Source: Fluviicola sp.
Lineage (GTDB): Bacteria > Bacteroidota > Bacteroidia > Flavobacteriales_D > Crocinitomicaceae
DNA: 33,465 bases
Assembly: GCA_002733985.1 (NCBI GenBank)
Contig: NVXP01000043.1
Coordinates: 3,809 to 37,273, forward strand
Reading direction: 5' to 3'
Below the pieces are notes generated by a model. The model searched no databases. It was given only the letters and a program-made list of their open reading frames with translations, and was not told where the DNA came from. Position numbers and translations under genes: made by a program. This document shows positions 1 through 29,379 of the stretch, one piece after another. Each line of letters opens with the position of its first letter. Position 1 is the stretch's first letter.

Positions 1-3000
1 TCCAAAAACAGATACTCCGCAAGAGCTTCTGCTTTTTCGCTTTGTGTTCTACCAGAAATCAATTCAGTTAATTCGAAACGAATATCACTTGGCACATCAG
101 AACTCTCAAAAGCAGAACGAACGAGGCCATACGCTTTCAGTCGTTTTTTCCAATTCTCCCGTTCAAGATCGTTTAATTCAAAGTTCCAGAAAAAGCGTGC
201 TTCAGCTCTAAGTGATGGCGAGAAAACCAAAAGATCGACCTCTTTCTGCATCGAAAGTAAGGCAGATAAAATTGTGGCAGCATCAACATCATGAATTCCT
301 TTAATATATCGTTCGTCGTAGCGATCATTCATGAATCGTTGGACAAGTTGCACTAGATCTTCCTTCGTTTTAGTTAAAACTCCATCCAAGCTCAGCTCTT
401 GATCGCCAAATTGACACGTGTTGTTCTCACTTAGCTGAAGAAAGATAATGTAGGCTAAATATTCAGCACGATAAACCGTTTCGTTTTCTGAAACAATTAA
501 TTGATCCCAAAACTTACGCGTCTGCAAGAAGGTTTCATCCTCAATTGGTTCAAAGAAACTTGTTCCTGTAAGGTGATAATTCATTTCATCCCCTCTTTGA
601 ACCAAGGTTACATCCAATTTTTTCGTGTTCACGGAGAAATGATGTTTCCCTAATTTAATGATATCATCTCCCTCAGCAAATAATTCCGATTTATCTCTTA
701 GTTGGCGTAATGCGTTTTCTTTAGCTGACTTTAACTGGCTTTTGAGATCATCCGCTTTCACAGAATCATCAATTGCTGTCAACTTCTCGATGTTATCTCT
801 CACCTTCTGTACCAGTGAATCTGATGCGAGGTAAGCATTTATTTCATCAACCGTTTTAAATTTCCCTAATCGTTTATTAATCCCTAGAATAATTCTTTCC
901 GCTGATCGTTGAATCGCAACAGCTTTGTTGTTTCTTTCCTCTACCAATGAGAGCTTATGGGACTCGAAAGCATTTGTAATTTCTTCACGAACATCAGTGA
1001 TCATCACACCGAATTCAGGAAAGTCGGAAAACTTACCTTCTAGATCTTCCAATTGGATAATCAATCGATTCAAATAGTCCTCACACTTTGTAGGAGTATC
1101 ACTAAGGTTGATGTAATTCGAGGCACCTTGTTGAATCAACTTCAAGTGACTGTTGAACTCATTCTCAGCTTCTGCTCCAAAAATATTCTTCCGTTTCTTC
1201 TTGAGATCTGCAATAATTCGATTGAAACGGTAGAAAATATCAGTGATATTATCGATGATCTTTGTCGTTACCGTACTGTCTTTAATGTCTAAAGAGTTTA
1301 CAATTTCAATCATCAGTTCCAATTCACCCGAAACCGTTGAAATTTGTACATCTAGCTCATCGGCTTGAATAACTTTGGTGATTTCTTTCAAAGAAGTTTC
1401 AATCTGATTCACTTTTTCCTCATAGGGTTTTAGTGCATCATCCGTCAATAAAAAGGTCACACATGACTCAGAATATTTCCCTTGAAGTTCCAAGACATTG
1501 CTTTCCATTTCGTCAATTTGACTGGTATCAATGTAACGTGTTTCTTTTGCTGAAATCAACTCACCGCGTAAACTCCGAAGACTTGTCAGCGTATCTACAA
1601 AATGTTGAACATTCGTATACGTAGCTGATTTAGCCGATTGGCGCACCAAATTGAACTTATCATCTAATACATCAATATCAGCCTCAGCCGTTTTCTTTAG
1701 ACCCAACACTTTATCAAACTCTGCAATCGCCGACTGTGCAGTCGATTCGATTTGTTCCAATGGAATTGAAAGTTCGTTTGCTTCCTGGTGTGAGACCCAA
1801 TGATACGCATCCAATGTAACGCGCGCCATTTTGGATAAATCAACGTATAAAGTACCGTATGCTTCTTCCCGTTGAATTAATTTCAAAATCGAACGGCATT
1901 CAGCCATAGCTGTCACCACTTCCTTGTTTCCTACTTTGAATAAATAGGCGTCTTGATTGGTATTTTGAATTCGATCTGCATGTGAGAATGGCGTTTCCCA
2001 AATTTGAATGCTGTGGTGTTTTTTAGCGACTGCTTCGGATCGAAACAAACACATTTCACCATTATCAAAAATGGAATATCCGTGACAATGAATCGGTGAT
2101 CCCAATTCTTGTTCAATAATATTGTAAAGCAACAGTGTATATCCTCCTTCTTCGGGGTTGTAGAATATGTATAGAAAATCTTCGCCATTGGACGACGGAA
2201 TACACTTAACAAACCCCAATCCATCGTAGGCAAAGTCGAACAGTTTATATTCGCCAGATTGCAAATAATATCCCTGCGGGAAAATGATCCCTTGATCTTC
2301 AGGCAAGAGAATACATGCTTCTTTGAGTCCATCAACTCTGATCGCTTCTTTTATTCGATCGTTGTAAATGATGAACCGTTCCTCTTTCTCTTGATACGGT
2401 ACAATTCGCAACACGATAATATCGCCGATAACGGCATATGACACTTCCGCATCATTTAAGGTTTGATCTTTTTGATCGACAGGTTCGGCATAAATTCCCA
2501 ATCCCGATTCTGTATTGTCCTCAATTTTTATCGTAAGATCTCCACCGACCGTCTCAACAAACACCTTGTTTTCAATCGAAATATGTGGATGTAGACCCGA
2601 TACATGATCATCGGCACTCGGTCTTTTCCAATCGAACCCATGCTGTTCCGGAAGTCGTACTTCATGTTCACTTCTAGCGTTTTCATACTTCAAGGTAGAA
2701 TCCGCTTGAATCAGCCATTTGAAGGTTTTAATATCGGTAATGCTCTTCCCTATTTGGAAAACAAAATAGAGGTAGCCATTTTTCTCTATGAACTGTGAGA
2801 AAGTTGCGGATCGATAATATTTATAGAGGTTTTTAAAGTCCTTGATGAAGGTATCGTCCTTCAAAAAAGAAGATGAACCAGGCTTAAAACTGCGCTCTTG
2901 GTATTCGTAAACGCTAAAAACGTCTTCAATAGCAGTTTCCGTTTTCAACCCAATGTGGACGTTGTATCCAAATATAAATCGATCACCAATAGGCACCATA

Positions 3001-3209
3001 TCCCGTGCTTCACAGGAATGCTGGGTTGTGATGTGTTCTGTCGCGATAAGCTGCGTTTCTACACCACCGAAAATTTCTTTCCGCTGCTCGTTTAATATTC
3101 CTAATCTAGATTTGAGGTCCGCCCCGTATTTATTCAATCGATTCCGAATGATCTCATACGTGCCTTGCTCCAGTTCCGATTGGTCCTGATTTTTTTGCTT
3201 TTCCGACAT
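1..3209 (-). CDS. Large ATPase-like protein, DUF3686 'DNA repair ATPase' type (C-terminus beyond window)
   Basis: The minus-strand frame is open from an ATG at 3207-3209 to the left edge, giving 1069 codons and no stop, so the C-terminus lies outside the window. The start (MSEKQKNQDQSELEQGTYEI) follows the flotillin stop by 24 bp. The first ~60 residues are helical and charged; residues ~60-450 look beta-rich and soluble; from ~450 onward there are long charged helices typical of coiled coil. No signal peptide, membrane segment or Walker A motif is visible. From memory of the family, Bacteroidota proteins with this N-terminus, annotated 'DNA repair ATPase' with a DUF3686 domain, reach roughly 1600-1800 residues and carry an AAA+ module at the far C-terminus, which would be outside this window. 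The association with PspA, flotillin and YqiJ-like genes supports the assignment and suggests a role at the membrane rather than in DNA repair. The ATPase activity itself is not shown by this sequence. Confidence 0.7.
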   Translation of the reverse strand, partial: MSEKQKNQDQSELEQGTYEIIRNRLNKYGADLKSRLGILNEQRKEIFGGVETQLIATEHITTQHSCEARDMVPIGDRFIFGYNVHIGLKTETAIEDVFSVYEYQERSFKPGSSSFLKDDTFIKDFKNLYKYYRSATFSQFIEKNGYLYFVFQIGKSITDIKTFKWLIQADSTLKYENARSEHEVRLPEQHGFDWKRPSADDHVSGLHPHISIENKVFVETVGGDLTIKIEDNTESGLGIYAEPVDQKDQTLNDAEVSYAVIGDIIVLRIVPYQEKEERFIIYNDRIKEAIRVDGLKEACILLPEDQGIIFPQGYYLQSGEYKLFDFAYDGLGFVKCIPSSNGEDFLYIFYNPEEGGYTLLLYNIIEQELGSPIHCHGYSIFDNGEMCLFRSEAVAKKHHSIQIWETPFSHADRIQNTNQDAYLFKVGNKEVVTAMAECRSILKLIQREEAYGTLYVDLSKMARVTLDAYHWVSHQEANELSIPLEQIESTAQSAIAEFDKVLGLKKTAEADIDVLDDKFNLVRQSAKSATYTNVQHFVDTLTSLRSLRGELISAKETRYIDTSQIDEMESNVLELQGKYSESCVTFLLTDDALKPYEEKVNQIETSLKEITKVIQADELDVQISTVSGELELMIEIVNSLDIKDSTVTTKIIDNITDIFYRFNRIIADLKKKRKNIFGAEAENEFNSHLKLIQQGASNYINLSDTPTKCEDYLNRLIIQLEDLEGKFSDFPEFGVMITDVREEITNAFESHKLSLVEERNNKAVAIQRSAERIILGINKRLGKFKTVDEINAYLASDSLVQKVRDNIEKLTAIDDSVKADDLKSQLKSAKENALRQLRDKSELFAEGDDIIKLGKHHFSVNTKKLDVTLVQRGDEMNYHLTGTSFFEPIEDETFLQTRKFWDQLIVSENETVYRAEYLAYIIFLQLSENNTCQFGDQELSLDGVLTKTKEDLVQLVQRFMNDRYDERYIKGIHDVDAATILSALLSMQKEVDLLVFSPSLRAEARFFWNFELNDLERENWKKRLKAYGLVRSAFESSDVPSDIRFELTELISGRTQSEKAEALAEYLFL

Positions 3210-3233
3210 GTGTTGGTTCGATCTTAACGAAAT

Positions 3234-5402
3234 TTATTCTCCTAATCCTAAACTTCCTGCATTTGTGCTCTCAATTCCAAAACGTTTTGCCATTGACAGT
3301 AATTCTGACAACATGGATTGATCATCGTCAGACTTAGCCGATTTAATCAATTTCATGAGTAAAGCCGAAACTGTCAGGTTTTTAACGTCTGCCGTTTTGA
3401 TATTTGATCCAGCAATTAGTCCACGAATCTTATCCAATACCGTCTCACCATTGGTAGATGACAATAATTGTTCTTTTACCGTATTGATAATTTCACTTTT
3501 ATCAGCGTACTGATCGATCACTTTCGCATTTGAAATAGCCCCAATGATCTTATCAAAGAACACTGGTTCACCACCAACAATATCAATCTTAGCTGATTGC
3601 AATGCACTCGAAAGAACAGTTGCTTGAGCCGCTGCGATGTCACTCTGAACATTAATTTGCGCCAATTCAACTTCTTTCTGTTTATCCAAGTTCAACTTGA
3701 ATTCTTCGTGATCTTTTCCAACACCATCCAGTTGCTTCATTGCTTCTGCCTTCTCCTTGATTCCTTCGGCTTCTGAACGTAACTTTTGTTCTAACACAGC
3801 TGCTTCAGCAAATCCTTTTTCTTTCTCGGCTGCAGCTCTCATGTTGATCACATCTGCATTTGCGCGACCAAGTTCTGTATCTCCAATAGCTTTTGCATGA
3901 GATCGAACCTGAACACCTTTTGCTTGTGCAATTGCCTCAGCCTCAAGCACAGCAGCTTCTGCTTCACCCTGCTTCTCTCTCGCCTCAGCTTTCGCCTCCA
4001 TTATTTTTGCTTCAGCTACTCCAACAGCCGCCTGTCTTGTTGCTTCTGCATCCGCTAAAATTATTATTGCTTCTGCTTCTTGAGTAGCCGCTTTTTGTCC
4101 AGCTTCAGCCTCGATCAATTTTTGAGTTGCAGCATGTTCAGCAGCGGTTTTCTTCGCCTCTGCCATTTTAATCTCCTGTACAAATTGCTTCTCAGCTTCT
4201 TGCTCTGCAGCAGTAATCGCTACTGTTTTTTCACGATCCGCTTGAGCAAATGCACGTGTATTCTTAATTTTTTCTTCTTCGTCAACAACCGTCTTTTCAA
4301 TTGCGATACGATCTCGAATGACTTCTTGAATGTTCCGTTTCTCAACCTCTACGACTTTCTCTTTCTCAATTTGAGCAAGTGTAACAACCCGTTGACGCTC
4401 ATTCAACTCAAGTTGTCTATCCTTTTCAACTCTTTCCGTTTCAACGGCCAACGTACGTTCCTTGTTCTTCTCAGCGGTAATGACTTGACGTTGCTTATTT
4501 TCTTCAGCAATCATCAATTCTTCCTCTGTATCGATTCGAGCGCGTTCCGATTTCAACCGTTCTTCTTCAGCCACTTTACTGATCTCTGCTCCTTCTCTCG
4601 ACTTAATGTTTGCAATTTCTCTCTTCTGCTTTTCTTCTTTCTCCGCCAATTGACGTTCCATCTCTAGAATCGCTTCACGGGCATCAACATCTTGTTGTTT
4701 AATGACCTTCTCTTCCTCTCGCTTAATACCATTTGACAATACATTTTGCCTTGCCGTCAATTCGTTAATTTTCTTGATCCCTTCAGCATCTAAAATATTC
4801 ATTGCACTCAATGAAGAAAGGTGCGTTTGCTCCAAGTAATCAATTGCGGCATCATCTAAAGCGTATCCGTTTAGATCTCTACCAATCAGGTTCAAAATCT
4901 CTTGACGGAATTCATCTCTTTTATTGTAGAGATCAACGAAATCAAATTGTTTCCCAACAGTCTTTAAAGCTTCAGAAAATTTCGCTTCGAATAATTCATT
5001 TAATGCCTCAGGATCTGACGCTCTTTCACAACCAACAGACTGCGCAACGCGCACAACATCATCTCTCATTTGATTTACACGAACGAAAAATGCTACTTTA
5101 ATATCTGCTCGCATATTATCGCGGCAAATTAAGCCATCCTTCCCCATTCGTTCAATGTTGATTGTTTTCAAGGAAATATCCATCCTCTCTAACCTGTGAA
5201 TTACTGGCCAAACCATCATTCCTGTAAATGAAACCTTCGTTCCACCCACTCCAGTTTTCACCAAGGCCTCACCTTGTATCGCTTTTTTGTAGAACTTGGC
5301 TAGCATAACGAGAATAATGACAATAACTACAGCTATAGTTACTCCAATAATAATTCCCATACTAGAGGCTAAACTGCCCGTTTCTACTGCTAGGTTGATC
5401 AT
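3234..5402 (-). CDS. Flotillin family protein (YqiK-type SPFH/band 7)
   Basis: The 722-residue protein has a short N-terminal outside segment, one transmembrane helix at about residues 15-36, an SPFH/band-7 domain at ~40-220 (containing TGVGGTKVSFTGMMVWPVIH), then a very long Glu/Ala/Lys-rich coiled coil at ~225-560 and a smaller C-terminal domain ending GSLGLGE. This is the architecture of YqiK-type bacterial flotillins, which oligomerise on the inner membrane and organise membrane microdomains and fluidity. It sits between the YqiJ-like gene (18 bp upstream) and the large ATPase gene (24 bp downstream), so it is almost certainly co-transcribed with them. The YqiJ-YqiK pairing is a known flotillin arrangement. 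The Ala/Glu-rich coding sequence creates long leucine-rich antisense open frames that are not genes. Confidence 0.93.
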   Translation of the reverse strand: MINLAVETGSLASSMGIIIGVTIAVVIVIILVMLAKFYKKAIQGEALVKTGVGGTKVSFTGMMVWPVIHRLERMDISLKTINIERMGKDGLICRDNMRADIKVAFFVRVNQMRDDVVRVAQSVGCERASDPEALNELFEAKFSEALKTVGKQFDFVDLYNKRDEFRQEILNLIGRDLNGYALDDAAIDYLEQTHLSSLSAMNILDAEGIKKINELTARQNVLSNGIKREEEKVIKQQDVDAREAILEMERQLAEKEEKQKREIANIKSREGAEISKVAEEERLKSERARIDTEEELMIAEENKQRQVITAEKNKERTLAVETERVEKDRQLELNERQRVVTLAQIEKEKVVEVEKRNIQEVIRDRIAIEKTVVDEEEKIKNTRAFAQADREKTVAITAAEQEAEKQFVQEIKMAEAKKTAAEHAATQKLIEAEAGQKAATQEAEAIIILADAEATRQAAVGVAEAKIMEAKAEAREKQGEAEAAVLEAEAIAQAKGVQVRSHAKAIGDTELGRANADVINMRAAAEKEKGFAEAAVLEQKLRSEAEGIKEKAEAMKQLDGVGKDHEEFKLNLDKQKEVELAQINVQSDIAAAQATVLSSALQSAKIDIVGGEPVFFDKIIGAISNAKVIDQYADKSEIINTVKEQLLSSTNGETVLDKIRGLIAGSNIKTADVKNLTVSALLMKLIKSAKSDDDQSMLSELLSMAKRFGIESTNAGSLGLGE

Positions 5403-5420
5403 AATTAATTATAGATTAGA

Positions 5421-6053
5421 TTAGATTTCAAAATGTTGTTCTACTAAATAGTAGTTGTCTTTATTGCCGTCATTAATGATCATGACTTTTTCACCAACGC
5501 TTGCTTTTCCTTCTTTTACTCGAATATCGAGTGTTAGAAAAGCTCCTCCCAATTTAAATTGCGCTTGCCCCGTTTTATCCGATGTAGCCATCATTCTGAC
5601 TTCCCCAACTGTTCCAAGAACATCGCGGTCCACATTTTCCTTATCCAAAGCATCAAATATTTTGACAAATGGAGTGGTTAAGATTTTCGCCACGAAAAGT
5701 GCTAGAAAAAACATCGGAACCGTTACTAATAACCCAGTAAGGAATCCTTCAAATCCAAGCCAGTGATTGACTAGAACCGTTCCAAACCACCAAGGTAAAA
5801 CAAGGAACGTCAGGAAAATCATGAATGGAACTCGCCCTAGGTTGAAGAAATAAAGAACTTTGTTGAGCCCAAAAATATTCGCACTATCCACATCTGCATC
5901 GACATCAACGTCTACATCCAGGTCTATGTCGAAGTCAAAATCGAAAGTATCGAAGTCAACGGCACCAAAGAGTACAACGAGCCAATAAATGATTATTACC
6001 AAAAATAATATAGTGACAAGAATGTTGGATGCTTGGAAGAATATGTGGATCAT
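5421..6053 (-). CDS. YqiJ/DUF1449-like membrane protein with NfeD/OB-type C-terminal domain
   Basis: A 210-residue membrane protein: helix 1 at ~10-31, an acidic stretch at 33-56 in which Asp alternates with another residue (12 Asp in 24 positions), helix 2 at ~74-97, helix 3 at ~103-127, then a soluble beta domain at ~143-210 (GTVGEVRMMATSDKTGQAQF and a following GEKVMI strand) that resembles the OB-fold of NfeD/YqiJ proteins. YqiJ/NfeD-type proteins are the usual partners of flotillins and are thought to bind them at the membrane. The gene lies directly upstream of the flotillin gene and 12 bp downstream of the PspA gene. The Asp run is probably on one face of the membrane between helices 1 and 2; divalent-cation binding is only a guess. 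Confidence 0.85.
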   Translation of the reverse strand: MIHIFFQASNILVTILFLVIIIYWLVVLFGAVDFDTFDFDFDIDLDVDVDVDADVDSANIFGLNKVLYFFNLGRVPFMIFLTFLVLPWWFGTVLVNHWLGFEGFLTGLLVTVPMFFLALFVAKILTTPFVKIFDALDKENVDRDVLGTVGEVRMMATSDKTGQAQFKLGGAFLTLDIRVKEGKASVGEKVMIINDGNKDNYYLVEQHFEI

Positions 6054-6065
6054 AGGAGGCTAAAG

Positions 6066-6794
6066 TTAAGAATTAGTTGACGAACTATCCGACTTAATTC
6101 CTAATCTCTCCTTCATTTTTTCCAATTCTTCGTTAGCCGAAATACGACTTTCACCTCCAATAGCGTTTTCTATCTCTTCATCAAGCGAACGGCTCTCACC
6201 TGCAATTTCACCATAGGACTCAGCCAAAGCTTCTTCCTGTGCTACTTTTTCTTTCATTCGCTCCAACATAGAAACAGTCCCTCCAGTATCTAATGCTGAC
6301 ATTTGACGGTTTATATTTTTAGTTGCAGTAGCAACTTTCACACGAGCTGTTAATGTTCTAAGCTCATTTTCATAGTGACTGATCTTAGATCGTAAGCCTT
6401 TAATATTGCCTTCTAGCTTACTTACTGAACTTTCGAACTTGTTCTTATCCTCCAGCGCATCAGAAGCATGTTTTACATTCTCTTGCTTCTTCAACAAAGC
6501 CTCCGAAGCCAACCTGTCTGATTCTCCAGAATCCATATCTCCAGATTGCCCTTTTTTCAATAGAAGCATTGCTTTTCGCTCATACTCTTCCGCTTTATGC
6601 GTGTATGATTCATGATCATTTCTCGAACGAATTGTCATTGCTTTAACTTCTGCTAATGCCTTGATACCGTTCCCCAAACTTTCTTTCAACTCTCGAATCC
6701 CCTGCTCGGTCATTTTAATTGGATTCTCCAATTTATCTAGCGCAGAATGAGCTTCTGCCTCACCGATTCTAAATAATCTCTTAAATATGTTCAT
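6066..6794 (-). CDS. pspA: PspA/IM30 (Vipp1) family protein
   Basis: A 242-residue, almost wholly helical protein without membrane segments. The N-terminus (MNIFKRLFRIGEAEAHSALD) is the membrane-binding amphipathic helix of PspA/Vipp1 and is followed by the family's helix start LENPIKMTEQGIRELKESL. Long coiled-coil helices run to ~190, then a Glu-rich tail and a Ser-rich end. PspA/IM30 proteins belong to the ESCRT-III superfamily: they polymerise on stressed or leaky inner membrane and preserve its integrity. In E. coli PspA works with PspF, PspB and PspC, none of which is present here; instead the partners are DUF2170, a YqiJ-like protein, a flotillin and the large ATPase. The symbol is used at family level only; the context is closer to yjfJ than to the classical psp operon. 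Confidence 0.92.
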   Translation of the reverse strand: MNIFKRLFRIGEAEAHSALDKLENPIKMTEQGIRELKESLGNGIKALAEVKAMTIRSRNDHESYTHKAEEYERKAMLLLKKGQSGDMDSGESDRLASEALLKKQENVKHASDALEDKNKFESSVSKLEGNIKGLRSKISHYENELRTLTARVKVATATKNINRQMSALDTGGTVSMLERMKEKVAQEEALAESYGEIAGESRSLDEEIENAIGGESRISANEELEKMKERLGIKSDSSSTNS

Positions 6795-6806
6795 TTCGTT
6801 TCTTTT

Positions 6807-7205
6807 TTATTTTTTTGAAAATGAGATGATTTCATCTGAAAACTCACTCAGAAGAAGACTAAGGGAATTAATCGACCCTTCTAGCTCATTCTTATCTAAA
6901 TTCTCTAACTGTAGCGTATCCCTGAAAATAACCTTTACTCCATCTTCATTAAGGACAAACGCACCATGGACAATGTCCCGGTTCTTTTTCAATAAAGCTT
7001 TATATGTACTCATTGAATCAGCAGGCATATCAAAGATGTGTTGCTCCATGATTAGTATTGGATCAGAACAACCAATTACAAGGTTATTTATCCCTTCCTC
7101 TTCCCTGTTCACCACGAACACGCCATTTTCTTCTTCTTCTAAGGAAATAATGTAATTTAGGTCGAGTAGATATTCCCGTACCTGATTAAAATATATATCC
7201 GTCAT
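6807..7205 (-). CDS. DUF2170 (YjfI-like) protein
   Basis: A 132-residue soluble protein of mixed alpha/beta character with no signal peptide. The central part (DPILIMEQHIFDMPADSMST, then YKALLKKNRDIVHGAFVLNE) and the final acidic amphipathic helix match my recollection of the DUF2170/YjfI family, small cytosolic proteins encoded beside PspA-type genes (yjfI-yjfJ in E. coli). It is the first gene of the five-gene operon, 12 bp upstream of the PspA gene. The biochemical role is unknown; a partner or adaptor of PspA is a reasonable inference. Upstream is the AT-rich divergent spacer shared with the XRE regulator. The family call rests on motif memory plus context. Confidence 0.72.
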   Translation of the reverse strand: MTDIYFNQVREYLLDLNYIISLEEEENGVFVVNREEEGINNLVIGCSDPILIMEQHIFDMPADSMSTYKALLKKNRDIVHGAFVLNEDGVKVIFRDTLQLENLDKNELEGSINSLSLLLSEFSDEIISFSKK

Positions 7206-7355
7206 ATTTTTAATTAATTTTCATGTATGATTAGGTGCAAAATGAATCGCACGTATAAAAGTAATTCTCCACCGTCGACATTTCAAATATACACATTTAT
7301 TTATTAAAAACTATTATTTTTAGCATTTTACTAAAAAAATAATTAGCTTTGACTT
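7206..7355. promoter_or_regulatory. Divergent control region between the Psp/flotillin operon and the XRE regulator
   Basis: This 150 bp spacer is very AT-rich. Facing right, TAGCTTTG at 7344-7351 fits the Bacteroidota minus-7 consensus TAnnTTTG and ends only four bases before the XRE ATG. Facing left, CAAATATA at 7284-7291 reads TATATTTG on the minus strand, about 80 bp before the DUF2170 ATG. Neither has a clear TTG at the minus-33 spacing. An inverted repeat TTTTTAG (7317-7323) / CTAAAAA (7331-7337), with a 7 bp spacer, sits between the two boxes and is a candidate operator for the adjacent XRE protein. The boxes are read directly; operator function is inference. Confidence 0.45.
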
Positions 7356-8090
7356 ATGCAAGCGATCAATAAGAACATAAAAAAACTTCGGAGTCTGAAA
7401 GGACTAAACCAAGGAGAATTCGCAAAACTCTTTGACTTAAGCCGAGCTAACATTGGATCATATGAAGAAGGAAGAGCGCAACCAAAAATTGACACCGCTA
7501 CGCGCATTGCTAATTTTTTTAGCATAAGTTTAGATGACTTTGTAAATAAGGAACTCAGTGTTAATGATCTTTCTGGTTTTTATGAATTAAAGGAAAACGA
7601 AATACACACCCCCACTTCGCATAAAAATGAAATGGTTTCTGTTTCTTATGTTGATTCAAGTGAAATACGGAAATTCCTTTTGTTAGGAAAAGCTAAGAAT
7701 CAAATTTCTATTCCAAAGCAGCATAGTGCAGACTTAGCTCTTTGTCATAAAGGTCATCACCTGGAAGGAAAGGATGGGATCTCAGAAGGAGATATCCTTT
7801 TGCTCAAACGAATTCAACCTTCCGAAATTCAACATGGATTCATTCATGCCTTCTGGAACAATGAGCAGATGACGGTCGGAATTTGTTTTCTGTACGGAAA
7901 AACAATTGAGCTCAAAGGAATTCAGGAAGAATCGTCGCTTGACAGTCTATCCTTAGATGAAGTTGGAAAAGTATGGCGCTTACAATCAGTGATCTCTTCT
8001 AAGCAAAGAAATTACGAATACATACTGTTGAATAATCGAATTTCAGAATTAGAAGAGACATTAAAGAGGTTCATCTCAGAACATAAATAA
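7356..8090 (+). CDS. XRE-family transcriptional regulator with S24-like, probably non-proteolytic C-terminal domain
   Basis: A 244-residue protein. Residues ~4-62 are a Cro/C1-type helix-turn-helix (LRSLKGLNQGEFAKLFDLSR then ANIGSYEEGRAQPKI). Residues ~115-190 resemble the beta fold of LexA/CI-type S24 domains (ALCHKGHHLEG ... ISEGDILLLKRI), but the position of the catalytic Ser in the usual G-[DE]-S-M motif is GHHL (133-136), so autoproteolysis is unlikely. The C-terminus (~222-244) is a short coiled coil that could support dimerisation. XRE proteins with an S24 fold are often repressors that respond to a signal. The gene is divergent from the PspA/flotillin operon and is its most obvious candidate regulator; that link is inferred from position only. 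Confidence 0.85.
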   Translation: MQAINKNIKKLRSLKGLNQGEFAKLFDLSRANIGSYEEGRAQPKIDTATRIANFFSISLDDFVNKELSVNDLSGFYELKENEIHTPTSHKNEMVSVSYVDSSEIRKFLLLGKAKNQISIPKQHSADLALCHKGHHLEGKDGISEGDILLLKRIQPSEIQHGFIHAFWNNEQMTVGICFLYGKTIELKGIQEESSLDSLSLDEVGKVWRLQSVISSKQRNYEYILLNNRISELEETLKRFISEHK

Positions 8091-8248: not shown

Positions 8249-9463
8249 CTAATCTTTTTTCAATAGATTTGTTGGGGTCGTTTCATTGATTACAATAAAA
8301 GCATCGTACGTCGCAACCCCATTCGCTAATGGTCTATATCTAGAAATTTTGTACCCACTTTCACTCTTCCCATAAATAGCTCCTATAAAAGTCATTAATA
8401 GCTTGTCGATATTAGGTATTTGTTCGCTCCGAACAAATTGAGAATGTGATTTGTTTTTTATCACTTGATATGCGATTGACTTTCGTTTGCTCGGTTTTAA
8501 TTGAAAGATCTCCATTTCATGTTCACCATCGACATAAGTAATTGCATTGAAGCTCCCCTTGTTTAAGTCTTGGGCTATACAAAAATATTCATCGTTGAGC
8601 TCTTCGAATAAGTAACGACCCGCCGATTTAGTATTGGGTAAATTATATTTATTGATTCGATTTGTTTTAGAAATATGCCAATTGTGAGCGAAATAGAAGC
8701 CCTTAGCATTTGGCTTAGCATTTAGGTAAGCAATCATATTAACAGCCATACAACTATCACGAAAGTTACCTCTGTAAGAAGTTGTTAATTCTCGCTCAAA
8801 CCATTGATCTATGCTTTGGCGCAACAGGCTATCGATTCTTGAGTTTAGAGATTTGGTCATTAATTTGAACTCATTCCATTCACTGAAGCTAGTTATTAAT
8901 GCTAAAGTGTCCGAAGGATCAATGTCGAACTCAGGTAATTTATCGTTGAGTAAGGAATCGCTATTTCTGGTATAGATTCGGCTCAACTCAATGCCATCAT
9001 CCTTTAGTAATTGCATGTCACATCCTACAAATTCAATCTTATTGTTGTTTTGCTCGTTTGAATTATATTCTTTCATCCATTCAACCAATTCAGTCATTTC
9101 CGTAGTTAACCAAGGCCAAAGTCTAATTTCGGTAACTGCAGGCAGAATACTATCTGGTTCACCATGAATATATCTATTGATTCGCCGACAAGCACCGACA
9201 TCAGCTTCAAGGAAAAATGTATTGTAATCATGGTTTTCAACCAGATACCTGAAAAGCCTATGTCTCATGATTGTAAATTCACTGGTACCATGAGTACTCT
9301 CCCCAACACCAATAATTTTCCGATTCATGAATAATGAATCTAATGCGGAAAGGTCATTTGTTTCTGCATCAGGAGACAAGGATAATAAAGAAGTAGAGCT
9401 TACTCCACTCTGACCAAAGCAATAGAGTTGAGCTAAAAAGAAGAGAAAAATAAAATACTTCAT
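8249..9463 (-). CDS. Secreted erythromycin esterase-like protein
   Basis: A 404-residue protein with a Sec signal peptide (residues 1-18, ending CFGQ) and an erythromycin-esterase-like domain over the rest. The family signature GVGESTHGTSEF places a conserved His at 58; Glu86 lies in FFLEAD; FAHNWHIS supplies His260/His263. These match the His/Glu/His positions important in EreA/EreC-type esterases that hydrolyse the macrolactone ring. Length is typical of the family. Many Bacteroidota homologues have no known substrate, so macrolide hydrolysis is possible but unproven; the signal peptide indicates action in the periplasm or outside. It stands alone on the minus strand, 65 bp downstream of the NhaC gene, and converges with the XRE gene. 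Confidence 0.85.
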   Translation of the reverse strand: MKYFIFLFFLAQLYCFGQSGVSSTSLLSLSPDAETNDLSALDSLFMNRKIIGVGESTHGTSEFTIMRHRLFRYLVENHDYNTFFLEADVGACRRINRYIHGEPDSILPAVTEIRLWPWLTTEMTELVEWMKEYNSNEQNNNKIEFVGCDMQLLKDDGIELSRIYTRNSDSLLNDKLPEFDIDPSDTLALITSFSEWNEFKLMTKSLNSRIDSLLRQSIDQWFERELTTSYRGNFRDSCMAVNMIAYLNAKPNAKGFYFAHNWHISKTNRINKYNLPNTKSAGRYLFEELNDEYFCIAQDLNKGSFNAITYVDGEHEMEIFQLKPSKRKSIAYQVIKNKSHSQFVRSEQIPNIDKLLMTFIGAIYGKSESGYKISRYRPLANGVATYDAFIVINETTPTNLLKKD

Positions 9464-9528: not shown

Positions 9529-11145
9529 TTACTGTTTGATCTTTTCTTTTATTTGTTTTGGATCAATTCGCTTGATTCGAATATTCAAATAACCATAAAG
9601 AACTGTCATCACTGGACTAATCAAATTGAAGAAGCAATACATGAAGTACTCACCTGTTGCGACGCCTAAAACCGTTGATTGAGCTGCCCCACATGTGTTC
9701 CATGGCACTAAAACAGATGTAACAGTACCAGCATCTTCAAGTGTTCGACTTAAATTCTCAGGTGCCAATCCTCTATCACGATACGTATCAGAATACATCC
9801 TTCCAGGAACCACGATTGCCAAGTATTGATCGGATGCAGTAATATTGAAGAAAACACACGTTGCCGCCGTAGTAGCGATTAGCGATCCTGCTGATTTTAC
9901 AATTGAAACAATTGATCTAGTAATTTTCTGAAGCAATCCGCAAGCCTCCATCATCCCACCAAAACACATGGCGCATATTATCAACCAAATTGTATTCATC
10001 ATCCCAGACATCCCCTTGGACTTAAAGAGTTTATGAATTGATCTGTAAGTAGTATGATCAGAAGCTAAGAGAGTCTTATACTCTTCCGAGTTAAACTCTG
10101 AATTTGCAATTAAGGTTTGAACTTTTGGATCACTTGATTTTAACTTAAAAACTTCGGGGTTTTCTGATTTGACATCAGCGTATACTTCGTAATCATCTCC
10201 AAGAATTGAAATCTCTCCAAACATTGAGTTTACCGAAGCTGTATAGCCAGCCAACGCATAATTCTCTTTCTCTCCAGAAATCTTTTTTATTAAATCAGGT
10301 TGAAATATAAGTGCGAAAATTGCACCAAGAATAACTCCGGCGAATAATGCAGGAATGGCTGGCACTTTCTTTACGATGAGAAAAATAACCAATGCAGGAA
10401 CAATAAAAAGAATCGGAGATATAAAAAAGTTAGATTCCAATAATGCTAAAATTCCATCAACCCCTTCCTGACTTGGCACAGAAGTAATAGAGAATCCCCA
10501 AATAAGAAAAATGATAAGAGTAATAACAATAGAGGGCACTGTAGTCAATCCCATGTAGCGTATGTGCGTAATCAAATCGGTCCCTGCCATCGCAGGCGCA
10601 AGATTAGTGGTGTCAGACAAAGGAGACATTTTATCTCCGAAGTAAGCTCCAGAAATAATAGCACCAGCAACGACGCCAACATCTATCCCCAATACAGTTC
10701 CTATTCCTAATAAAGCCAACCCCACAGTAGCAATGGTACTCCAAGAACTCCCTGTAGCCATAGCAACAATTGCGCTAATGATACAAGCTGCAAAAAGGAA
10801 TATTGTTGGATTCAGTATTTTTAATCCGTAAAAAATCATGGTAGGAACCACCCCTGAGATCATCCATGTACCGGCCAAGGCACCAATCAATAAGAGGATA
10901 ATTATTGCTGGTATAGCTGACTTGATGCTTTTCACAACACCTTTTTCGAGCTTCTCCCAAGAATAATTCAACCTAAAACCAATCACAGTAGCGACAGCTG
11001 CAGCAATTAACAAGGCTATTTGATTCGGTCCGTAAGTTGCGTCTTCACCATAAATCCAAACATTCATCCCCAATAAGAGGACGAGTACTGCAATTGGAAT
11101 AAGTGCGACTAAAAAATGAGCTTCTTTTTCTGACTTAGCAACCAT
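9529..11145 (-). CDS. nhaC: Na+/H+ antiporter, NhaC family
   Basis: A 538-residue polytopic membrane protein, about 11-12 hydrophobic helices. The diagnostic NhaC block GAYFGDKMSPLSDTTNLAPA is at ~167-186, preceded by the helix motif ATGSSWSTIATVG at ~130-142. NhaC carriers exchange cytoplasmic Na+ for external H+ and serve pH and sodium homeostasis, which fits a marine or brackish lifestyle. A hydrophilic region of ~100 residues (281-380) between two helices makes it longer than classical NhaC (about 460 residues). It lies 41 bp downstream of the MMPL transporter gene on the same strand and may be co-transcribed with it, though no direct functional link is evident. Confidence 0.92.
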   Translation of the reverse strand: MVAKSEKEAHFLVALIPIAVLVLLLGMNVWIYGEDATYGPNQIALLIAAAVATVIGFRLNYSWEKLEKGVVKSIKSAIPAIIILLLIGALAGTWMISGVVPTMIFYGLKILNPTIFLFAACIISAIVAMATGSSWSTIATVGLALLGIGTVLGIDVGVVAGAIISGAYFGDKMSPLSDTTNLAPAMAGTDLITHIRYMGLTTVPSIVITLIIFLIWGFSITSVPSQEGVDGILALLESNFFISPILFIVPALVIFLIVKKVPAIPALFAGVILGAIFALIFQPDLIKKISGEKENYALAGYTASVNSMFGEISILGDDYEVYADVKSENPEVFKLKSSDPKVQTLIANSEFNSEEYKTLLASDHTTYRSIHKLFKSKGMSGMMNTIWLIICAMCFGGMMEACGLLQKITRSIVSIVKSAGSLIATTAATCVFFNITASDQYLAIVVPGRMYSDTYRDRGLAPENLSRTLEDAGTVTSVLVPWNTCGAAQSTVLGVATGEYFMYCFFNLISPVMTVLYGYLNIRIKRIDPKQIKEKIKQ

Positions 11146-28101: not shown

Positions 28102-29379
28102 CTACAAATTCTCGTTCACCAAAGCGACCCACAAGGTTATCAATCCATCATCCATTCGAGGCCAAATTGGGCGAATGACACCGTTGACAGCCGCAATGTT
28201 GAGGTAATCTCCGAAAAAGATATTATCTACTGGTGTAAATGGTGTTCTTGACAATTTTGTATCAACGAATGTCTTTCCTCCATCTTTAGACACAGACATG
28301 TAGACATCCGTCTGTGTATCTGAATGATTTCTGCGGTCGTAGTAGACGAAATAGATGTATCCAGTACTTTGATCGACATCCATCCATGTATAGAATTGAT
28401 GGTTTTGAGAGTCGTCCTGATTGACTTTGATTGCCTCACTCCAAGTTGTTCCTCCGTCAGCCGACTTCATGATGAAAACGTCTGTATTGTCCTCGCCATT
28501 TCGTTGATCACACCAATTCAGGTATAAGGTTCCACGGTTTGGTCCGTTACTAAGGTCGCACTTTAAAATAGGCAATCCATTTGCACGACTCATCCCTGGG
28601 ATTTCGAGTGTCCATCCACCCCACTGTTTCTCTAATTGAATTTCTTCAGAAAGCCATGTTGTTCCTCCATCAAGGGATTTTTGCATCACCAACCCCAGAG
28701 GACCAGTCCACGTAACGTAGAGCTCACCATTTGGCCCAACTGCCGGCACTGCACCTTCAACGGTTTCATCGTCATCAAGACAATCTCCACCAAACTTTGA
28801 GATTCGCAATGGATCAGACCATGTTTTCCCTTGATCTGAAGATTTTGAAAATACGATGATCGATGAGTCAGCAGGATTTGCTGAATTATATGCATCGAAT
28901 TGTGTCCATGTCATGTAAAGATCGTTCGTCTTTGAATTCACAACGATCCAATGCTTGTCTTGCACTTTTGTTCCATTCGGTTTAGGGAAAGTTCCTTTGC
29001 TGAATGTACCACACACTTTATCTGCAGATTGGCAAATAATTCGATCTAGGTGCGATGTTTCTTCATAGCTCGACAAATGAAAATAATATGGCCGACCGAT
29101 CGTGTCAAAAATCAGGACAGGATCTCCATACACTCCATAAGGACTTTTCAAAGATTTACTTTTCCACTTTTTCCCTCCGTTTTTCGAATAGTAATAATCG
29201 TTCAGGAGGGATCCCGCGATCATTATCTTCGGGTTTTTCGGATGAATTGCTATCGACGGCTCGCATTGAGCATATCGATATTCAGAACTCTTCGGAAGCG
29301 GAATTTGAACCACTTTGTAATCTTGCCCGAAGGAAAATGATCCCTGAACAAGTAACAAAACAAGCGCTAGTCTTTTCAT
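28102..29379 (-). CDS. Exported sialidase-fold (BNR/Asp-box) protein
   Basis: A 425-residue protein with a Sec signal peptide (~1-19, ending SFGQ). It contains five Asp-box repeats: SKNGGKKW (65-72), SSDQGKTW (180-187), SLDGGTTW (235-242), SADGGTTW (306-313) and SKDGGKTF (364-371), the hallmark of a sialidase-type beta-propeller. I do not see enough to confirm the sialidase catalytic arginine triad, so glycosidase activity is open; many such proteins are of other or unknown function. No C-terminal sorting domain is present. Its ATG overlaps the stop of the M61 peptidase gene by four bases, so the two are coupled. Confidence 0.85.
   Translation of the reverse strand: MKRLALVLLLVQGSFSFGQDYKVVQIPLPKSSEYRYAQCEPSIAIHPKNPKIMIAGSLLNDYYYSKNGGKKWKSKSLKSPYGVYGDPVLIFDTIGRPYYFHLSSYEETSHLDRIICQSADKVCGTFSKGTFPKPNGTKVQDKHWIVVNSKTNDLYMTWTQFDAYNSANPADSSIIVFSKSSDQGKTWSDPLRISKFGGDCLDDDETVEGAVPAVGPNGELYVTWTGPLGLVMQKSLDGGTTWLSEEIQLEKQWGGWTLEIPGMSRANGLPILKCDLSNGPNRGTLYLNWCDQRNGEDNTDVFIMKSADGGTTWSEAIKVNQDDSQNHQFYTWMDVDQSTGYIYFVYYDRRNHSDTQTDVYMSVSKDGGKTFVDTKLSRTPFTPVDNIFFGDYLNIAAVNGVIRPIWPRMDDGLITLWVALVNENL

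What the first reader, a model, noticed from the sequence alone, without database searches (positions are those of the whole stretch)
1..8090. PspA-flotillin-YqiJ-DUF2170-giant ATPase operon with a divergent XRE regulator
Five genes on the minus strand with 12-24 bp spacing combine an ESCRT-III-superfamily protein (PspA/IM30), a flotillin, its NfeD/YqiJ-like partner, a YjfI-like small protein and a very large ATPase-like protein. In eukaryotes, ESCRT-III filaments are disassembled by the AAA ATPase Vps4. A PspA filament, a flotillin platform and a dedicated ATPase in one operon suggest a self-contained bacterial membrane-remodelling machine in which the ATPase would recycle PspA. The classical PspF/PspB/PspC partners are absent and an XRE protein takes the regulator position. 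Family associations of PspA with flotillin/YqiJ are known in general; the combined machine and the Vps4-like role are my inference.
Basis: partly seen in the sequence, partly recalled or inferred. Interest (0 to 1): 0.78.

Follow-up and report, generated by a model that had tools for sequence, protein, structure and literature searches.

The report
Known PspA–flotillin–ATPase membrane-stress operon
A Bacteroidota bacterium carries a six-gene cluster probably used to look after its inner membrane under stress; such a cluster was already described in 2024, and comparing genomes suggests that its giant motor protein belongs first to the flotillin membrane proteins and only secondarily to the ESCRT-like protein PspA.

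Summary
In detail: five minus-strand genes (CesT/Tir, PspA, YqiJ, flotillin, giant ATPase; gaps 12, 12, 18, 24 bp) and a divergent XRE gene. Two corrections: the small protein is CesT_Tir_1 (PF22550), not DUF2170; and the ATPase (1,632 aa, DUF3686) has its AAA domain outside the window. The operon is already in print: Ravi et al. 2024 describe this gene set, the ATPase architecture and an ESCRT-like reading. My survey weakens the Vps4-like role. Of 72 ATPase loci with enough upstream sequence, 70 have the flotillin and 67 YqiJ, but 32 have PspA, all from Bacteroidota; 15 of 44 genomes with a PspA-less locus show no PspA hit anywhere. The predicted AAA domain is closest to MoxR ATPases (CbbQ, NorQ), and no MIT domain was found. 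New details: XRE accompanies each of the 32 CesT-PspA sets; 21 of 35 XRE-operon promoter regions share an operator-like palindrome, though the window has only a degenerate form and the motif was read by eye. In passing: CesT-PspA without this ATPase sits behind a J-domain gene in 9 of 11 loci. A new member of a known kind.

The parts
1..3209 (-). DUF3686 AAA+ ATPase, first 1069 of 1632 residues: predicted beta-propeller (about residues 50-405), then long helices; the AAA domain lies beyond the window start (L003:7017-2119)
3234..5402 (-). flotillin/SPFH protein of the YqiK family (722 aa)
5421..6053 (-). YqiJ-like membrane protein (210 aa)
   Evidence: below cut-off; YuaF, E 0.17
6066..6794 (-). 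PspA/IM30 family protein (242 aa)
   Evidence: only E 0.023 to E. coli YjfJ by BLASTP
6807..7205 (-). CesT/Tir-superfamily protein, PF22550 (132 aa)
7206..7355 (.). divergent XRE-CesT intergenic region: TAnnTTTG-type element TATATTTG at 7284-7291 on minus; perfect 9-bp inverted repeat at 7313-7321 and 7335-7343
   Evidence: the relatives' operator-like consensus is present only with 3 mismatches
7356..8090 (+). XRE-family HTH regulator (244 aa), probable operon regulator

Best explanation
This is the Bacteroidota form of a widespread membrane-maintenance unit. Its core is YqiJ + YqiK-type flotillin + DUF3686 AAA+ ATPase; in Bacteroidota an XRE-controlled CesT/Tir-PspA pair is joined to the front of it. 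Most likely working (inferred): flotillin and YqiJ form a scaffold in the inner membrane; the ATPase, a MoxR-like remodelling motor with a beta-propeller and coiled-coil arm for binding partners, works on proteins held by or near that scaffold; the CesT/Tir protein keeps PspA soluble or controls its assembly; PspA is recruited to stressed membrane and stabilises it; the divergent XRE protein sets expression of the operon, probably as a repressor. Shown here: gene content, order, conservation, motifs, predicted folds. Inferred: every functional step.
For: Full set in 32 of 72 loci, flotillin in 70 and YqiJ in 67 of 72. ATPase residues in 94 proteins (two of them duplicates): SPPGYGKTT 94 of 94 (PPGYGKTT was a search pattern, so partly by selection), Walker B Asp-Asp 94 of 94, Asn1392 94 of 94, Arg1410 94 of 94, Arg1526 92 of 94 with 2 gaps. 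AAA model (mean pLDDT 83.4): ten MoxR rows (CbbQ, NorQ) at Z 15.3-17.8 (6l1q: Z 17.8, rmsd 3.7, 251 aligned), next Rea1 13.8, dynein 13.7, ClpC 13.5, Cdc48 13.1. N-terminal model (pLDDT 88.4) matches beta-propellers at modest Z (9b9h, DCAF1 WD40: Z 9.0, rmsd 6.0, 227 aligned). XRE beside all 32 CesT-PspA sets and kept in 2 Chryseobacterium loci without CesT-PspA. The P. aeruginosa bac operon, which also begins with a CesT-fold protein and a PspA homologue, is co-transcribed, and loss of its first gene raises the other products 6.1- to 13.5-fold (PMC10948618, passages). In B. subtilis an SPFH protein is needed to bring PspA to the membrane (PMC8581546, passages).
Against: I found no experiment on this operon in Bacteroidota. 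Walker A departs from the strict pattern: GxxGxGKT matched 0 of 16 proteins because the first residue is Ser; Walker B has Asp for the usual Glu, so hydrolysis could be slow or absent. By Foldseek E-value the best single hit is RuvB, not a MoxR protein. P. aeruginosa bacC-bacF were not compared by sequence, so their identity with this operon's genes is recall. The operator-like motif is not clean in the window. 2 of 72 loci have neither flotillin nor YqiJ.
Confidence: 0.6

Rival explanations
1. Vps4-like machine: the ATPase is a dedicated disassembly motor for PspA filaments, with the flotillin as platform.
For: Same operon as PspA with short gaps; AAA+ motifs present; PspA is an ESCRT-III superfamily member (PMC8281802, start of abstract); the 2024 survey also suggests ATP-dependent remodelling for PspA/AAA+ pairs; where PspA is present the set is kept together across Bacteroidota.
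Against: 40 of 72 ATPase loci have no PspA in the operon; 15 of 44 genomes with a PspA-less locus have no PspA hit at E <= 0.001: five not labelled metagenome assemblies (R. baltica BR-MGV, Acidaminobacter JC074, two Chryseobacterium, Dysgonomonas DSM 22835) and ten labelled so. The two Chryseobacterium loci keep XRE, YqiJ, flotillin and ATPase. No MIT domain hit in the ATPase or genome. Fold nearest to MoxR.
Confidence: 0.15
2. Two independent machines share one promoter: CesT-PspA (membrane protection) and YqiJ-flotillin-ATPase are only co-regulated by XRE and do not touch each other.
For: The blocks occur apart: YqiJ-flotillin-ATPase without PspA in 33 of 72 loci, and in 2 more with XRE; CesT-PspA without the ATPase in 11 of the 19 genomes with a PF22550 hit at E < 1e-40.
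Against: The joined set is kept from Crocinitomicaceae to Bacteroides and Hymenobacter; an SPFH protein binds PspA in B. subtilis.
Confidence: 0.2
3. The DUF3686 protein is a DNA-repair ATPase, as its Pfam description says, and the operon is not about membranes.
For: Pfam description 'ATPase involved in DNA repair'; RuvB is the first Foldseek hit by E-value.
Against: Partners are flotillin and YqiJ in 70 and 67 of 72 loci; by aligned fold MoxR ATPases stand above the rest. Genes outside the operon families were not identified, so a recurring repair neighbour is not excluded.
Confidence: 0.04

Closest known systems
CesT/Tir-PspA + YqiJ + band-7/flotillin + AAA+ operon of Ravi et al. 2024 (PMC11237479; example ANH61663.1)
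   Same: Same five genes and the same ATPase architecture as described; shortened forms without PspA are described too (passages)
   Different: Main text has 0 occurrences of 'XRE' and of 'DUF3686'; figures and supplements not seen. I saw nothing there on an operator, a MoxR-like fold or the Asp-Asp Walker B
Pseudomonas aeruginosa bacABCDEF operon (PMC10948618)
   Same: Begins with a CesT-fold protein then a PspA homologue; six genes co-transcribed by RT-PCR (passages)
   Different: BacA is DUF2170, not PF22550; a sigma-54 site is proposed; bacC-bacF not compared by sequence here
E. coli yqiJ-yqiK and yjfIJKLMC
   Same: YqiK 32% identical over 450 columns; YqiJ similar by profile; yjfI-yjfJ is a DUF2170/PspA pair
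   Different: Two separate loci, and the DUF3686 control search rang in 0 of 14 well-known genomes (one search shows E. coli among them)
B. subtilis pspA-ydjGHI (PMC8581546)
   Same: PspA with an SPFH protein that brings it to the membrane (passages)
   Different: 'ATPase' has 0 occurrences in the main text; sigma-W control
ESCRT-III / Vps4
   Same: PspA is an ESCRT-III superfamily member; an AAA+ protein nearby
   Different: No MIT domain found, MoxR-nearest fold, ATPase often found without PspA
MoxR AAA+ ATPases (CbbQ, NorQ)
   Same: Nearest predicted fold of the AAA domain
   Different: Those are small proteins working with VWA partners (recalled); DUF3686 proteins here are about 1,600-1,900 residues with propeller and coiled coil, Walker B ending Asp-Asp

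Membership tests
Ravi 2024 CesT/Tir-PspA-YqiJ-flotillin-AAA+ operon | CesT/Tir and PspA dyad | tested here: met
[quoted passage not shown]
   YqiK homology; no Pfam hit
Ravi 2024 CesT/Tir-PspA-YqiJ-flotillin-AAA+ operon | YqiJ/YuaF-type TM protein | tested here: met
   Pfam hit under cut-off
Ravi 2024 CesT/Tir-PspA-YqiJ-flotillin-AAA+ operon | AAA+ fused to N-terminal beta-propeller and coiled coil | tested here: met
   (propeller by predicted model, Z up to 9.0)
YjfI / DUF2170 | PF09938 match or homology to YjfI | tested here: not met
   matches PF22550 instead
Vps4 | MIT domain | tested here: not met
   no hit (control rang in Sulfolobus)
Vps4 | classical AAA fold of the Vps4 clade | tested here: inconclusive
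   Vps4 6oo2 at Foldseek rank 44 (TMt 0.35); MoxR rows TMt 0.42-0.62; one search lists MoxR first
Vps4 | works with an ESCRT-III protein | tested here: inconclusive
   genomic proxy only: PspA in 32 of 72 loci; 15 of 44 PspA-less loci lie in genomes without a PspA hit; Snf7 not searched
MoxR AAA+ | MoxR-type AAA fold | tested here: met
   predicted model only: MoxR rows Z 15.3-17.8, next 13.8
MoxR AAA+ | VWA-domain partner gene | not tested
   neighbours were not scanned for VWA domains
classical Psp system (pspF-pspABC) | PspB/PspC/PspF beside PspA | tested here: not met
   none in the locus; PspB no hit in genome; PspC elsewhere

The most novel reading that the evidence does not exclude
CesT/Tir-PspA is a portable ESCRT-III-like cassette that lineages of Bacteroidota plug into different ATP-driven machines: in the window's class and its relatives into an XRE-controlled MoxR-like ATPase on a flotillin/YqiJ scaffold, and in other classes into the Hsp70/Hsp90 system through a dedicated J-domain protein (9 of 11 loci, 2 of them with an Hsp90 gene downstream), much as chloroplast VIPP1 is handled by HSP70B with a J-protein (recalled). 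Bacterial PspA would then have several independently recruited substitutes for Vps4.
Probability: 0.25. Interest if true: 0.6.

Novelty: new member of a known kind. Interest (0 to 1): 0.32.

Why it matters
[quoted passage not shown] The locus gives a testable set: an ATPase that could act on PspA, flotillin or both; natural PspA-less relatives as controls; and a second context where a J-domain gene stands beside CesT-PspA. The survey shifts the prior from 'PspA recycler' towards 'flotillin/YqiJ remodeller'.

Tried and rejected
Rejected or uninformative: DUF2170 label. Defence-system reading: padloc gave HTH-type hits to XRE and one weak coiled-coil hit to PspA. Viral copies: a scan of viral contigs with the single PspA sequence, which finds close relatives only, confirmed none of 17 candidates. 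Sigma-70 promoter scan: 25 found, 31.9 expected. Unbiased dyad search of the promoter regions: best exact dyad in 6 of 35 loci, reached by 3 of 40 shuffles, so not significant. Only the motif that I read by eye from these same sequences, TTRCWAA-N5-TTWGYAA, stands out: at most 1 mismatch in 21 of 35 (shuffles mean 0.36, maximum 2 in 300), at most 2 in 22 of 35 (mean 3.6, maximum 11). Many of the 35 are related, and the window's region has 3 mismatches. Genome-wide the perfect motif is not enriched: 83 sites in 28 genomes against 79 for the reversed control (summed by me), and in the window's genome the one perfect site is on contig C44, not at the operon. PDB sequence searches: flotillin profile nothing at E 0.001, YqiJ only YuaF at E 0.17, AAA profile short stretches around Walker A (best 60 of 74 shown). 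Vps4 is not among the 50 rows; that excludes nothing. DUF3686 gave no paper; 'DNA repair ATPase' with flotillin none.

Rows dropped: of 96 loci, L076 and L113 (ATPase split into two frames, under 1,300 aa each) are not; L032 and L035, duplicates of L036 and L090, were dropped; 20 of the 92 left have under 5.5 kb upstream and were not counted, one of which (L029) has the full set. The PspA genome check was given 44 of the 59 named loci without PspA; the other 15 have at most 3.1 kb upstream. Of the 44, L052 and L069 also have short upstream stretches (L069 is among the 15 without a hit), L042 and L062 have no flotillin or YqiJ, and L076 and L113 are the split ones. Loci L036-L115 are the best 80 by similarity out of a capped list, so they lean towards Bacteroidota. 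In one search, 20 of the 39 genomes with a PF22550 match have only weaker hits (E over 1e-10) and were not examined.
Full report
What is there. The window's first 8 kb hold a divergent pair: an XRE gene on plus (7356-8090) and, on minus, a CesT/Tir protein, PspA, a YqiJ-like protein, a flotillin and a giant ATPase with gaps of 12, 12, 18 and 24 bp. The ATPase runs off the window. In the contig (L003) it is 1,632 aa, with two ambiguous bases inside it, followed after 34 bp by a 144-aa frame and then by a gene that I name Ffh by eye. Pfam: DUF3686 (residues 31-470), DUF7902 (591-675), AAA (1272-1392); PspA_IM30; CesT_Tir_1; HTH_3; YqiJ_N under cut-off; nothing for the flotillin. The flotillin matches E. 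coli YqiK at 32% over 450 columns; YqiJ matches by profile.

It is already described. Ravi et al. 2024 (PMC11237479; [quoted passage not shown] The P. aeruginosa bac operon (PMC10948618, passages) is a co-transcribed relative as far as its first two genes go; what its other genes are I know only by recall.

How conserved. PF12458 occurs in 8 of 296 genomes drawn from the phylum and in 9 of 60 near relatives, the window's own genome counted in both, so it is patchy. By the labels they lie in Bacteroidota, Planctomycetota, Verrucomicrobiota, Kiritimatiellota, Lentisphaerota, Thermodesulfobacteriota, Bacillota and one Pseudomonadota. Of 96 loci in all, 94 have an ATPase frame over 1,300 aa, 92 after two duplicates, and 72 of these have at least 5.5 kb upstream. 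Among the 72: flotillin 70, YqiJ 67, XRE 34, PspA 32, CesT 32; full set 32; YqiJ-flotillin only 33; flotillin only 3; none 2; XRE-YqiJ-flotillin 2. The 32 PspA loci are 21 named Bacteroidota and 11 from genomes of the window's phylum; 8 named Bacteroidota, all 31 named loci of other phyla and 1 without a phylum lack it. On a FastTree tree of the ATPases the PspA label needs 3 changes against about 24 in shuffles.

Test of the Vps4-like idea. If the ATPase existed to recycle PspA, it should not persist without PspA. 44 genomes with a PspA-less locus were searched with PF04012: 29 have a hit at E <= 0.001 (21 over the family cut-off) and 15 have none. Of the 15, five are not labelled metagenome assemblies (R. 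baltica BR-MGV, Acidaminobacter JC074, Chryseobacterium aahli and balustinum, Dysgonomonas capnocytophagoides) and ten are, where absence is weak. So in most of the 44 a PspA elsewhere could still be a partner, as the 2024 paper suggests. The two Chryseobacterium loci keep XRE, YqiJ, flotillin and ATPase with 180 and 154 bp between XRE and YqiJ. In the other direction, 11 of 19 genomes with a PF22550 hit at E < 1e-40 have CesT-PspA without the ATPase beside it, and these are not among the 8 genomes with PF12458. The two blocks are separable. The role is not excluded where both are present.

The ATPase itself. Over 94 proteins (two are duplicates): SPPGYGKTT 94 of 94 (PPGYGKTT was one of two search patterns; the 16 found through PF12458 were not selected on it), Asp1344-Asp1345 94 of 94, Asn1392 94 of 94, Arg1410 94 of 94, Arg1526 92 of 94 with 2 gaps. 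The strict Walker A pattern GxxGxGKT fails in 16 of 16 because of the first Ser. The usual Walker B ends Asp-Glu; Asp-Asp-Ile-Gln resembles DnaA (recalled). The AAA model (L036, 471 residues, 70 sequences, pLDDT 83.4, pTM 0.71) has ten MoxR rows at Z 15.3-17.8, then Rea1 13.8, dynein 13.7, ClpC 13.5 and Cdc48 13.1; by Foldseek E-value RuvB comes first with TMt 0.37, and MoxR rows reach TMt 0.62. The N-terminal model (window residues 5-560, pLDDT 88.4, pTM 0.83) is read as a beta-propeller at about residues 50-405; matches are modest (best Z 9.0), followed by long helices. These are predictions. No MIT hit in the ATPase or the genome.

Regulation. XRE is present in all 32 full sets and in 2 loci without CesT-PspA. 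In 31 aligned XRE proteins the HTH is conserved (invariant Y36, E37, E38, R40, P43) and the C-terminal part is not. An element of the Bacteroidota promoter type, TAnnTTTG (consensus recalled), is in 20 of 35 intergenic regions against 4.4 (maximum 10) in mononucleotide shuffles; in the window it is TATATTTG at 7284-7291. The palindrome TTRCWAA-N5-TTWGYAA occurs with at most one mismatch in 21 of 35 regions (shuffle mean 0.36, maximum 2 of 300) and perfectly in 14. Against it: read by eye from the same data, not strict in the window, not singled out by an unbiased dyad search, and not enriched genome-wide. Repression by XRE is an inference.

A second context of CesT-PspA. In 9 of the 11 loci without the ATPase a small protein with a J domain (PF00226 over cut-off in all 9) lies directly upstream of CesT; in 2 of them (L146, L148) an Hsp90 gene follows PspA (in L148 with one short frame between). 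No XRE-profile hit appears near any of the 11. By the labels the 9 come from two families and six genera of other classes, so the independent evidence is small. The other two look, by eye, like the spermidine-synthase type operon of the 2024 paper. 'DnaJ', 'J-domain' and 'Hsp70' have 0 occurrences in that paper's main text, and a search for PspA, DnaJ, CesT and gene neighborhood gave no other relevant paper. That chloroplast VIPP1 is disassembled by HSP70B with the J-protein CDJ2 is recalled; one search shows only papers holding these terms. This is the part I would follow first.

Verdict. Real, conserved, correctly spotted; already in print as an operon; the specific Vps4-like claim is weakened, not excluded; added details are the XRE association, the MoxR-like fold, the Asp-Asp Walker B and the J-domain context.

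Noticed in passing
L146-L150, L152-L155 (unnamed Bacteroidota genomes): J-domain gene directly upstream of CesT-PspA in 9 of 11 loci without the DUF3686 ATPase; Hsp90 gene downstream of PspA in L146 and L148.
   Followed up: partly
L004:4336-5046 (G000 contig C67): A second PspA in the window's genome, without a CesT/Tir neighbour, near a transporter-like gene and an ABC transporter-like pair (neighbours named by eye).
   Followed up: no
L003:3799 and 3808: Two ambiguous bases (N) inside the ATPase gene, just outside the window start.
   Followed up: no
L003:2119-7017 minus, ATPase residues 1344-1345 (outside the window): Walker B with Asp-Asp instead of Asp-Glu, in 94 of 94 DUF3686 proteins examined.
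   Followed up: partly
window 8249-9463 minus; 9529-11145 minus: Erythromycin-esterase family protein and Na+/H+ antiporter beyond the XRE gene; a relative of the former was found in none of the 15 other ATPase loci, the latter was not sought.
   Followed up: no
window 28102-29379 minus: BNR-repeat protein with a match to a T6SS immunity family (Tli3), perhaps only through its repeats.
   Followed up: no
G000:C48:10836-11006: PspC domain within a 541-aa frame elsewhere in the genome.
   Followed up: no
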